A stretch of 64,000 nucleotides of DNA from an uncultured Acetatifactor sp. (GTDB lineage Bacteria > Bacillota > Clostridia > Lachnospirales > Lachnospiraceae), in the NCBI GenBank assembly GCA_949840935.1, contig CATKXX010000005.1:1-64000 (forward strand), in the 5' to 3' direction. Position 1 is the stretch's first letter. The number at the start of each line of letters is the position of its first letter. The notes under the pieces are model-generated. The model was not told the DNA's origin. It was given only the letters and a program-made list of their open reading frames with translations, and did not search any database. Positions 15,258 to 18,335 of this stretch are shown piece by piece. Made by a program: the position numbers and the translations under genes.

Positions 15258-16361
15258 CTACCGCCCCGTCCCCATCATTCTCCCCAGCTGCTCCACAATC
15301 CCGGCGCTGCCGTTTACGGAGATTTCCCCTACCTTCTCGCATATTTTCTCCAGATACTCGAGCTCCTTCAGCTTATAGAGCGTCTGGTTTTCGTCCATGA
15401 GCTTTGCCGTGTTGAGAAGGGAGCGGGTGGAAGCCACCTCCTCCCTTCTGGCGATCACGTTTGCCTGGGCCGCTTTCTCCGCCACAAGGACGGAATTCAT
15501 GATCTCCCGGATCTCGCCGGGCAGAATGATATCCTTGATTCCGGCGGTGAGGAAGCTCACGCAGAACATATCCTCCCTCGCCTTAAGTGCCTGGAAAATT
15601 TCCCCGGAAATCCGCTCCTTCGCCTCCAACAGCTCATCCAGCTTATAATTGCCCACGATTTCCCGGATGGCCAGCTGTACCGCTGGATAAAGCTGTCCCT
15701 TGAGGTCGGAAATCTTAGACACAAATTCCACGGCGTCCCGCACCCTGTACATGCAGACAGCGTTCAGCCGGATGCCAATCTTATCCCTGGTCAGGATTTC
15801 CTGCCCCACGATATCCAGCTCCCTCTGTTTCATGTCGATGACACAGAAACGGATCCCATGGTTGTGATTCCAGAACCGGTACACTCCCATGGGAAAAGAG
15901 GACTGCATCACATTGTCATAGTAGGCCAGCCCGACCTCACCCTCTCCCACCGACATTTCTGTGTAAAGATTTTTCGGAACCAGGGTAAGCATCTGTTTCG
16001 TAATCTCCTCGCCGATCAGGGTATTTTCCATAGAAATCACCTTCATCTCGTATTTGTCAAATACGTTCCAGAAGACATAATCCTTCCGGGTGGCAAAGGA
16101 CGTCAGCTTCCCGTTCATATAGAGGAAGCCGATGCAGCCGTCCGGTATTTCCATATGTACGGTGGCTTCCCGAAACGCGGGATCCCTGGAAAGCACCTGG
16201 TAAGGGACTTCCAGGTAATCCATCTCGCCCAGCATCTCCTCCACCGCTACCGTGTAGCCCGCCATTTTGGAAAAATGCCAGGTTCCCGCAGTGATCATCT
16301 TCTGGAAAACACCGTTTTTTAACACAAAACCCGCCTGATTATCTCTGATGATATATTTCAA
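15258..16361 (-). CDS. Slipin / SPFH (band 7) family protein
   Basis: LKYIIRDNQAGFVLKNGVF...LDIVGQEILTRDKIGIRLNAVCMYRV...LEAKERISGEIFQ; TTG start 6 nt after GAGGAGGTG. Confidence 0.8.
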   Translation of the reverse strand: MKYIIRDNQAGFVLKNGVFQKMITAGTWHFSKMAGYTVAVEEMLGEMDYLEVPYQVLSRDPAFREATVHMEIPDGCIGFLYMNGKLTSFATRKDYVFWNVFDKYEMKVISMENTLIGEEITKQMLTLVPKNLYTEMSVGEGEVGLAYYDNVMQSSFPMGVYRFWNHNHGIRFCVIDMKQRELDIVGQEILTRDKIGIRLNAVCMYRVRDAVEFVSKISDLKGQLYPAVQLAIREIVGNYKLDELLEAKERISGEIFQALKAREDMFCVSFLTAGIKDIILPGEIREIMNSVLVAEKAAQANVIARREEVASTRSLLNTAKLMDENQTLYKLKELEYLEKICEKVGEISVNGSAGIVEQLGRMMGTGR

Positions 16362-16425
16362 TTGAAACACCTCCTCGTTGTTATTTTGTACATCCCGCCA
16401 GCCGCAAAACAGCATCTTTCCTCCC

Positions 16426-16490
16426 AGAGCGTGTTTGAAAATGCTGTCCCTGGGACGTGCAGACCGGGGGAATGATTTTTCAAACATGTT
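16426..16490. repeat. Dispersed palindromic repeat, copy B (MITE-like)
   Basis: AGAGCGTGTTTGAAAATGCT ... AATGATTTTTCAAACATGTT inverted ends; internal CGTGCAGACCGGGGGAATG shared with copy C. Confidence 0.7.
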
Positions 16491-16610
16491 ACCGCCTGAC
16501 GCGGAAGGCCTGTTCAGCAGGCTGTGGGGAGGAAGGGCAGGCTGCAGCCAATATCGCCGCCGTCCCATACCATAATCTGTTACACAAACCCGCCGCAGGG
16601 ACATTGTCCG

Positions 16611-16737
16611 GGCGTTTCCGCCTTACTCAGTCCCGCCAGGCGCGGCCTTTCCGGCGTTTCCGCCTTACTCGTCCCGCAGGGCGCGGCCTTTCCGGCACTT
16701 TCCGGCCTTACTCAGTCCCGCAATGCGCGGTCTGTTT
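16611..16737. repeat. 42-bp GC-rich tandem repeat, 3 copies
   Basis: GGCGTTTCCGCCTTACTCAGTCCCGCCAGGCGCGGCCTTTCC repeated at 16611, 16653 and (diverged) 16694. Confidence 0.85.
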
Positions 16738-16879
16738 CGCAGATTCGGTTTATGGATTACGGCAAACGTTTTACTACAGCCTGTTGTTCCTCCTTTCAGC
16801 CTGCGGTATCCCAGGCCCCCGGCAGCAGGGCGGACAGGCATTCCGCTTTCGCTCATGCCTGAAATCGGGACAAGACGTT

Positions 16880-17085
16880 TTTTGAGCGGATTCGAACCGC
16901 AGACTTTACAGGTCTTACCAATACATTGTGCACTCTGCCACTGAGCTACCGCTTACGCGGGAGGGATTTGAACCCTCGCATCACAATTCCTGCCTGACCT
17001 TCCGTCAGGCCCTGTGAAATATTTATGGGATACCGGACAGCACGCTGCCGGCACCGCCGGGCAGGGAGTATCTCCCAATACCCGC
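16880..17085 (-). ncRNA. tRNA-like RNA resembling the bacterial Y RNA (YrlA) tRNA-mimic module
   Basis: Minus strand ATTGTG-ATGC-[GAGGG TTCAAAT CCCTC]-[CCGC GTAA GCGG]-TA-[GCTC AGTGGCA GAGT]-G-CACAAT forms a circularly permuted tRNA; flanked by further hairpins, a second T-arm-like hairpin and an anticodon-arm-like hairpin. Confidence 0.75.
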
Positions 17086-17102
17086 GCTCAATAAATTATT
17101 TC

Positions 17103-18335
17103 CTAACCTTTCACTACTCCCACCGTTTTCAGTTTCCTCACCGGTGTGACCATGTCCGACTGCTGCGCCATGACCTGATCGATATCCTTATAGGCAAACC
17201 GGCACTCCTCGGCCACATCATTTTTCTTTCTTTTACCCAGCACCACATCCCGCTCCCTTAAGTCCAGTATGACCTGCTCTGTGGTGAATGCCTTCATGGC
17301 CCCGGATCTGGAATAGCTTCTTCCCGCACCGTGGGAGGAGGTGCAGAAGGATTCCCGGTTCCCTTTTCCTTCCACTACATAGCTGTAGGAGCCCATTGCG
17401 CCCGGTATTACGGCCATTTCGCCCTCCCGTACCCTGGTGGCGCCTTTTCGGTGCACCCAGACATTTTCGTCATAATGGTTTTCCAGGGCCGCGTAATTGT
17501 GATGGCAGTTGATCTCCTCCCCAAATTCCACGGCATGGCCCGTGTGCTTCCCGATCAGCTCCTCCACAACCGCGCAGGTCTTATCCAGCATACGGGCGCG
17601 GTTTTCAAAGGCATAGTCCATGGCAAGGTTCATCCAGTGGATATACTGCTGCCCCTCCTTTGACCCCACCGGCAGGAAGGATAAATGATACTCCTCCTTC
17701 ACATCACTGTACCACAGCCGGTTCAGCGAGGCTGCCTTCTTGTGGAAATAGTCGCAGACCGCCTTCCCCAGGTGGCGGCTCCCGGAATGGATCATAATAC
17801 AGAGATACCCCTCCTGATCCTCCTGAAGCTCAATAAAGTGATTCCCCCCACCCAGGCTCCCCACCTGGAAGTACCCGTCGTCAATCAGGGGCAGAAGCTC
17901 CTCATTCTGTATATACTGATCTATCTCCTCTTTCGCCTGGTCAAGCACCCGGGACTCCTGGGGAACCTTATACCTCTCCGTGTTCAGGGGGATGGCACGC
18001 ATAATGCTTCCCACAATGGCCTGTATCATAGTCCCGTTCCCGGTCTGAATCCCCCGGATGTCCTCCACAGGGATATTGGTGGGGATGAAATCCATACCAC
18101 AGCCGATATCCACCCCCACCGCGTTGGGAATGATCACATCCTTCGCAGCGATCACGCCGCCGATGGGCATCCCCTTTCCCGTATGGGTATCCGGCATCAG
18201 GCAGACCCATTTATGTAGAAAGGGAAGCTGGGACAGGTGATACGCCTGTTCCAGGCAGCTCTCCTCCAGGTGGCTTTCATCCTCCAGCCATACCTTGATG
18301 GGAAATCTCGTTTTTTCATTAAATAATACAAACAT
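17103..18335 (-). CDS. rtcB: RtcB family RNA-splicing ligase
   Basis: MPDTHTGKGMPIGGVIA, VGVDIGCGM, GGNHFIELQ, MIHSGSRHLG, CHHNYA, SSHGAGRSYSR are RtcB signature motifs. Confidence 0.92.
   Translation of the reverse strand: MFVLFNEKTRFPIKVWLEDESHLEESCLEQAYHLSQLPFLHKWVCLMPDTHTGKGMPIGGVIAAKDVIIPNAVGVDIGCGMDFIPTNIPVEDIRGIQTGNGTMIQAIVGSIMRAIPLNTERYKVPQESRVLDQAKEEIDQYIQNEELLPLIDDGYFQVGSLGGGNHFIELQEDQEGYLCIMIHSGSRHLGKAVCDYFHKKAASLNRLWYSDVKEEYHLSFLPVGSKEGQQYIHWMNLAMDYAFENRARMLDKTCAVVEELIGKHTGHAVEFGEEINCHHNYAALENHYDENVWVHRKGATRVREGEMAVIPGAMGSYSYVVEGKGNRESFCTSSHGAGRSYSRSGAMKAFTTEQVILDLRERDVVLGKRKKNDVAEECRFAYKDIDQVMAQQSDMVTPVRKLKTVGVVKG

What the first reader, a model, noticed from the sequence alone, without database searches (positions are those of the whole stretch)
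15258..18335. RtcB RNA ligase, Y RNA-like tRNA mimic and slipin in one collinear cassette
Seen: on the minus strand the order is rtcB (stop at 17103), then about 740 bp of intergenic sequence carrying a tRNA-mimic RNA and a GC-rich repeat block, then a slipin/SPFH gene with its own RBS. Known: in Salmonella-type genomes rtcBA is encoded with the Ro60 ortholog rsr and Y RNAs (rsr-yrlBA-rtcBA), and RtcB repairs RNAs with 2',3'-cyclic phosphate ends. Inference: this is a Firmicute RNA-repair or RNA-sensing module with a Y RNA-like component and a membrane scaffold, but no rsr (TROVE) or rtcR within the window. The tRNA mimic may recruit RtcB or report tRNA damage. I do not know of a described system with this exact layout.
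Basis: partly seen in the sequence, partly recalled or inferred. Interest (0 to 1): 0.9.

Follow-up and report, generated by a model that had tools for sequence, protein, structure and literature searches.

The report
Slipin-linked tRNA-mimic RNA beside rtcB
Between an RNA-repair ligase gene and a slipin gene in a gut Lachnospiraceae bacterium lies a conserved structured RNA that imitates a tRNA with its parts in rotated order; it comes and goes with the slipin gene and appears to fill the place that a Y RNA fills beside the Ro60 protein in other bacteria.

Summary
On the minus strand rtcB (18335-17103), a structured RNA (about 17103-16803) and a slipin/SPFH gene (16361-15258) are collinear. 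The RNA is real: two domains covary across 34 and 27 relatives. Its centre is a circularly permuted tRNA: T arm, acceptor stem closed by a GNRA-like loop, D arm, all inside the anticodon-stem helix. A second T arm and conserved 5' and 3' elements flank it. The permuted order is that of YrlA Y RNAs, but it is not a YrlA member: it scores 28 bits against a cut-off of 69, and ordinary tandem tRNAs score 29-35.

In 47 slipin loci examined the RNA lies directly 5' of slipin, even where rtcB is elsewhere. RNA and slipin are lost together while rtcB stays. No TROVE gene was found in 28 slipin-type genomes. In relatives a DUF2828 protein takes slipin's place beside a different tRNA-like RNA, and its predicted fold matches Ro60. 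So slipin fills the Ro slot. The 'membrane scaffold' idea lacks support: the slipin has no transmembrane segment.

From memory, Burroughs & Aravind (2016) already proposed SPFH/Band-7 plus 'a novel tRNA-like molecule' with RtcB; I could not open that paper. Best model: a slipin-RNA RNP that assists RtcB. Function is inferred only.

The parts
17103..18335 (-). rtcB, RNA ligase, 410 aa
   Evidence: PF01139 359.9 bits; aligns to solved RtcB 1uc2 with the active-site Cys and His positions kept: DIGCGM, GNHF, HSGSR, HHNY, SHGAGR
16803..17103 (-). whole conserved structured RNA between rtcB stop and slipin
   Evidence: conserved blocks in up to 47 slipin loci; first helix starts in the rtcB stop codon
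17016..17103 (-). 5' domain: closing helix GGAAATAATTTAT/ATAAATATTTC, hairpin 17087-17056, and GGTGCC-hairpin-GGTAT core (17055-17030)
   Evidence: alignment A2; model R2 finds it in non-training loci at 90-106 bits
16961..16977 (-). T arm 1 GAGGG-TTCAAAT-CCCTC of the permuted tRNA
   Evidence: alignment A1: 100% of cells paired, 3 of 5 pairs with compensatory changes
16949..16960 (-). acceptor stem CCGC-GTAA-GCGG, closed by a GNRA loop
   Evidence: 3 of 4 pairs with compensatory changes; CAT/ATG and 6-7 bp versions in relatives
16932..16946 (-). D arm GCTC-AGTGGCA-GAGT, preceded by TA (positions 8-9 of a tRNA)
16926..16986 (-). anticodon-stem-equivalent helix TTGTG (16986-16982) with CACAA (16930-16926), enclosing T-acceptor-D
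   Evidence: all 5 pairs show changes on both sides
16901..16915 (-). anticodon-arm-like hairpin AGAC-CTGTAAA-GTCT
   Evidence: 98.4% of cells paired, 2 of 4 pairs with compensatory changes
16886..16900 (-). second T arm GCGG-TTCGAAT-CCGC
   Evidence: 100% of cells paired, 2 of 4 pairs with compensatory changes
16803..16816 (-). 3' conserved element GCCTGGGATACCGC
   Evidence: GGATACC found in 37 of 47 slipin loci, including two other Clostridia families; 5' CGGTATCCC is its exact complement in the window
16611..16730 (.). GC-rich 41-nt tandem repeat, 2.8 copies; local insertion, not part of the conserved RNA
15258..16361 (-). slipin/SPFH gene, TTG start, 367 aa, no transmembrane segment
   Evidence: Band_7 83.4 bits; stomatin structures; maximum 19-residue hydropathy 1.31
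16370..16376 (-). ribosome-binding site GAGGAGG of slipin
   Evidence: sequence

Best explanation
The region encodes a trans-acting noncoding RNA of about 300 nt that works with the slipin encoded just downstream. Together they form a ribonucleoprotein accessory to the RtcB RNA ligase. The permuted-tRNA core offers a tRNA elbow (T arm, D arm, acceptor stack) that cannot be charged or decode, because its acceptor ends are joined in a tetraloop and its anticodon loop is opened into the flanking domains. It most likely docks a tRNA-elbow-binding partner (RtcB, a nuclease such as PNPase, or a tRNA-modifying enzyme), while the 5' and 3' domains bind the SPFH oligomer. Shown: the RNA fold, its link to slipin, joint loss with slipin, replacement of slipin by a Ro60-fold protein in relatives. 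Inferred: transcription, RNP formation, partner identity, role in RNA repair.
For: Covariation. RNA directly 5' of slipin in 47 loci, including two where rtcB is not adjacent (L161, L162) and two other Clostridia families (L130, L131). Joint presence or absence on the rtcB tree: 40 both, about 26 neither, never opposite in independent pairs. Seventeen rtcB-only genomes have no slipin hit at E<=1e-20 and no intact RNA anywhere. In the Ro slot of relatives sits a DUF2828 protein whose model's nine best PDB matches are all Ro60/TROVE, with its own tRNA-like RNA. RNA type follows protein type: 5' core in 44/47 slipin loci and 0/7 DUF2828 loci; ACAGCA motif 32 copies in 7/7 DUF2828 loci. Distance from the 3' element to the slipin start varies from roughly 160 to 440 nt, which argues against direct translational control.
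Against: No expression or binding data. The RNA lies only 5' of slipin, which also fits a cis leader. L161 keeps the 5' domain, second T arm and 3' element but has lost the T-acceptor-D core; L130 has lost the D arm; L133 lacks the second T arm. rtcB is not adjacent in L161, L162 or L130. Only 4 independent pairs rest on well-supported branches, so the sign test alone is not significant (p 0.125).
Confidence: 0.52

Rival explanations
1. The RNA is a cis-acting leader of slipin. The tRNA mimic senses tRNA damage, a tRNA-binding enzyme or RtcB, and switches slipin expression, for instance through exchange between the GGTGCC/GGTAT hairpin and pairing of CGGTATCC with the 3' GGATACCG.
For: Always directly 5' of slipin on the same strand; conserved complementarity of 5' CGGTATCC and 3' GGATACCG in the window; an SD-like AGGAGG follows the 3' element in many loci; no separate promoter or terminator found.
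Against: The spacer between the 3' element and the start codon varies from roughly 160 to 440 nt and no terminator is seen. The SD-like site has no start codon in place. The long-range pair does not covary: flanking bases stay fixed where pairing would need change.
Confidence: 0.22
2. The RNA is a decoy or sentinel: anticodon nucleases and other tRNA-cutting toxins cleave it instead of, or along with, tRNAs, and RtcB reseals it.
For: tRNA elbow plus an anticodon-arm-like hairpin with loop CTGTAAA; RtcB next door; tRNA fragments activate the rtcBA operon in Salmonella (PMC7790460).
Against: The anticodon-like loop sequence is not conserved and the hairpin is missing in some loci. In Salmonella the operon-encoded YrlA was not cut by the RecA-dependent nuclease (PMC7790460). 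A decoy alone does not explain the tie to slipin.
Confidence: 0.12
3. A true Y RNA whose Ro protein is encoded elsewhere or too diverged to see.
For: Same arm order as YrlA; weak YrlA match; a Ro60-fold DUF2828 protein occurs beside related RNAs.
Against: No TROVE in 28 slipin-type genomes including the window's; DUF2828 in one of them, as a fragment. The slipin-type RNA lacks the repeated ACAGCA motifs of the Ro type. YrlA score no better than tandem tRNAs.
Confidence: 0.07
4. Decayed tandem tRNA genes kept by chance.
For: T1-acceptor-D-anticodon-T2 is the order of the 3' half of one tRNA followed by most of a second, so a tandem tRNA pair may be its ancestor.
Against: Compensatory changes in the permuted helices, conserved 5' and 3' domains, joint loss with slipin.
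Confidence: 0.02

Closest known systems
Bacterial Y RNA YrlA (Rfam RF02553)
   Same: Permuted T arm - capped acceptor - D arm within an enclosing stem; encoded beside rtcB in some species
   Different: Score 28.4 bits against a cut-off of 69; about 300 nt rather than 90-150; second T arm and extra 5' and 3' domains; slipin in place of Ro/Rsr
rsr-yrlBA-rtcBA RNA repair operon (Salmonella; PMC7790460)
   Same: RtcB plus a tRNA-mimic RNA plus a ring-forming protein partner
   Different: No rsr, rtcA or rtcR found; slipin instead; Clostridia
SPFH/Band-7 module with 'a novel tRNA-like molecule' in RtcB RNA-repair systems (Burroughs & Aravind, Nucleic Acids Res 2016, gkw722; recalled from its abstract, text not held here)
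   Same: Very probably the same class of system: SPFH protein, tRNA-like RNA, RtcB
   Different: Could not compare the RNA. The permuted fold, 5' and 3' domains, joint loss with slipin and the Ro60-fold alternative are worked out here
DUF2828/DUF7788 proteins with tRNA-like RNA and rtcB (Oscillospiraceae and some Lachnospiraceae)
   Same: Same rtcB lineage, tRNA-like RNA 5' of the partner gene
   Different: Ro60-fold partner, RNA with repeated ACAGCA motifs and without the GGTGCC..GGTAT or GGATACC elements

Membership tests
YrlA / bacterial Y RNA | tRNA-like domain with T, acceptor and D arms in permuted order | tested here: met
   feature list from PMC8394870
YrlA / bacterial Y RNA | Rfam RF02553 gathering score (69 bits) | tested here: not met
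   28.4 bits; tandem tRNA controls score 29.4-35.2 bits
YrlA / bacterial Y RNA | long basal stem joining the RNA's own 5' and 3' ends | tested here: inconclusive
   only a 5-bp enclosing helix, conserved sequence continues on both sides
YrlA / bacterial Y RNA | Ro/Rsr (TROVE) partner in the genome | tested here: not met
   0 of 37 genomes, 28 of them slipin-type including the window's, which is 64% complete
YrlA / bacterial Y RNA | binding to PNPase or modification by TruB/DusA | not testable with these tools
   needs biochemistry
rsr-yrlBA-rtcBA operon | rtcA and rtcR | tested here: not met
   0 of 14 genomes for PF06956 and PF01137
RtcB RNA ligase | PF01139 domain with metal-binding Cys/His and guanylylated His | tested here: met
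Slipin / SPFH (stomatin-like) | SPFH domain | tested here: met
Slipin / SPFH (stomatin-like) | N-terminal membrane anchor | tested here: not met
   maximum 19-residue hydropathy 1.31, lying at residue 266
tRNA gene | 7-bp acceptor with free 3' end, anticodon arm, called by ARAGORN or Rfam | tested here: not met
   acceptor closed by a tetraloop
Burroughs & Aravind SPFH/tRNA-like/RtcB system | identity of their tRNA-like molecule with this RNA | not testable with these tools
   paper not held

The most novel reading that the evidence does not exclude
The RNA is a sentinel that RtcB reseals: cutting of its anticodon-like or enclosing helix by tRNA-damaging nucleases, followed by RtcB ligation (perhaps into a circle), reports RNA damage to a slipin ring. 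This would be a tRNA-mimic damage sensor with no Ro protein.
Probability: 0.1. Interest if true: 0.88.

Novelty: new variant of a known kind. Interest (0 to 1): 0.6.

Why it matters
It gives a defined, searchable RNA family (no Rfam 15 match reached its cut-off) with clear fold evidence, and shows that the Ro slot beside RtcB can be filled by an SPFH protein. That turns a general prediction about RNA-repair scaffolds into direct tests in cultured gut bacteria. It also links DUF2828 proteins to the Ro60 fold, suggesting that Ro-type RNPs are more widespread than TROVE searches show.

Tried and rejected
Model R1 over 200 family genomes: 30-45-bit hits looked like tandem tRNA genes and were set aside; spot checks of the printed sequences and one search confirm this for the ones examined. 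The window's YrlA hit was first read as homology, then discounted by the same control. Self-cleaving ribozymes flanking the module (a natural circularisation scheme): no Rfam match. Canonical-order tRNA with the second T arm: rejected, no pairing acceptor after it. Single-sequence AlphaFold of DUF2828 failed and was redone with an alignment. Pattern search outside Clostridia: the matches listed looked like chance hits in coding sequence. Papers: gkw722 and PMC4201824 not held.

Full report
WHAT IS THERE. On the minus strand the order is rtcB (18335-17103), 741 bp of intergenic sequence, then a slipin/SPFH gene. Pfam gives RtcB 359.9 bits and Band_7 83.4 bits. The slipin start is most likely the TTG at 16361, not the ATG at 16604 of the mechanical ORF: homologues align from residue 82 and AGGAGG stands 8 nt upstream. 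RtcB keeps the active-site Cys and His positions in its alignment to 1uc2. The slipin's best solved relatives are stomatins, but it has no hydrophobic stretch long enough for a membrane span (maximum 19-residue hydropathy 1.31).

THE RNA. ARAGORN and Rfam at gathering cut-offs find nothing in the gap. A permissive Rfam scan gives YrlA, 28.4 bits, E 6.8e-4. Eighty rtcB loci from GTDB genomes were fetched. Downstream of rtcB, loci with slipin carry the same RNA. The core reads: TTGTG - variable loop - T arm - CCGT/GNRA-like loop/ACGG - TA - D arm - G - CACAA. This is a complete tRNA body, circularly permuted: the acceptor ends are joined by a tetraloop, and the anticodon stem opens into flanking RNA. 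After it come an anticodon-arm-like hairpin and a second T arm. Before it lies a 5' domain with an invariant GGTGCC-hairpin-GGTAT core. After it, in 37 of 47 loci, comes a 3' element around GGGGATACCGC. The first helix starts in the rtcB stop codon in the window.

IS IT REAL? For the tRNA-like part 98.5% of cells pair and 16 of 26 pairs have compensatory changes (shuffles 4.3 +/- 1.5, 0 of 500 as high; sliding the partners drops pairing to 23-51%). For the 5' domain 94.8% of cells pair and 33 cells carry double changes (shuffles 11.6 +/- 2.4). Single-sequence folding is significant for the 5' domain (z -3.5) but not for the tRNA-like part (z -0.7), so the latter rests on covariation. Model R2 recovers loci not used to build it at 90-106 bits.

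WHICH GENE DOES IT BELONG TO? On an rtcB tree of 80 rows, 40 have RNA and slipin and 29 have neither (three of these are cut off by contig ends). One slipin-only locus (L078) has undetermined bases in the RNA; of the two RNA-only loci, L006 ends at its contig edge and L132 keeps a slipin remnant. The traits change together: 19 independent pairs on the best tree, 4 on well-supported branches, never in opposite directions (with only 4 supported pairs the sign test cannot reach 0.05). In 17 of the rtcB-only genomes neither slipin (E<=1e-20) nor an intact RNA is found anywhere; L023 keeps a decayed 5' domain (24.8 bits). In two further genomes the RNA-slipin pair stands away from rtcB (L161, L162). 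In two other Clostridia families the order is RNA-slipin, with rtcB directly after slipin (L131) or about 28 kb away on the same contig (L130). So the RNA is a companion of slipin, always 5' of it, and rtcB is a frequent neighbour.

THE RO SLOT. In Oscillospiraceae relatives of the same rtcB, and in L055 and L134, a DUF2828/DUF7788 protein sits where slipin would be, next to another tRNA-like RNA. An AlphaFold model made with 36 sequences (pLDDT 82, pTM 0.79) matches nine Ro60/TROVE structures first (E 1e-5 to 1.5e-3, 11-14% identity), although a sequence profile finds nothing in the PDB. The two RNA types are distinct: slipin-type RNAs have the 5' core (44/47) and the 3' element (37/47); DUF2828-type RNAs have neither (0/7) but carry repeated ACAGCA motifs (32 copies in 7/7). 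YrlA scores of L071 (56.8), L076 (53.0), L089 (45.7) and the slipin-type L131 (42.7) exceed tandem tRNA controls (29-35), while the window (28.4) and L133 (36.8) do not clearly do so. No TROVE gene was found in 37 genomes, 28 of them slipin-type, and RtcR and RtcA are absent from 14.

HOW IT MOST LIKELY WORKS. By position and substitution, slipin plays the part of Ro and this RNA the part of a Y RNA: a tRNA-elbow mimic on a ring- or cage-forming protein that serves RNA repair or quality control with RtcB. In YrlA the basal stem binds Rsr and the tRNA-like domain binds PNPase (PMC8394870). Here the 5' and 3' domains are candidates for binding slipin and the permuted tRNA for binding RtcB, a nuclease or a modifying enzyme. 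All of this last step is inference. The main rival is a cis-acting leader of slipin. The variable spacer to the start codon and the lack of covariation in the proposed long-range switch weigh against it, but do not exclude it.

NOVELTY. I recall the abstract of Burroughs & Aravind 2016 (gkw722) as naming SPFH/Band-7 modules with 'a novel tRNA-like molecule' among RtcB-type RNA-repair scaffolds. The paper is not held, and none of the papers opened repeats the claim. The kind of system is therefore probably already predicted. The RNA's anatomy, its tie to slipin and the Ro60-fold alternative are what this work adds. No experimental study was found in the searched library.

LIMITS. Many genomes are MAGs and the window's own is 64% complete. 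The 3' element is conserved, but its fold was not tested by covariation. The tRNA-like core is lost in L161, the D arm in L130, and the second T arm in L133, so parts are dispensable in some lineages.

Noticed in passing
G000 contig C21, locus L082:777-2616: A second rtcB paralogue (28-33% identity) followed by a GGQ-motif release factor of the RFH type, the known RtcB-RFH pair.
   Followed up: partly
L070, L071, L072, L076, L055, L134: DUF2828/DUF7788 proteins next to rtcB-linked tRNA-like RNAs are predicted to have the Ro60/TROVE fold despite no sequence match to it.
   Followed up: yes
L062:5247-8750 (a close relative, L063, was also fetched): A permuted tRNA-like RNA at 7489-7643 lies between a weakly TerD-like 727-aa protein and a PBECR4 nuclease-like gene, downstream of rtcB: a possible third partner type.
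   Followed up: partly
L030:5464-5633: The permuted T-acceptor-D module is tandemly duplicated.
   Followed up: no
L161:3973-4130: Slipin-linked RNA that kept the 5' domain, second T arm and 3' element but lost the T-acceptor-D core.
   Followed up: partly
L055:2278-2392: A DUF2828-linked RNA that reads as a tRNA in normal order with the anticodon arm replaced by an ACAGCA-bearing insert; Rfam calls it tRNA at 43.7 bits.
   Followed up: partly
window 16425-16490: Inverted repeat TGTTTGAAAA ... TTTTCAAACA just upstream of slipin, perhaps a small mobile element.
   Followed up: no
window 18600-20511: An argS gene on the plus strand, divergent from rtcB, with a GTAACCAT/ATGGTTAC hairpin in its leader; no Rfam T-box hit.
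   Followed up: no
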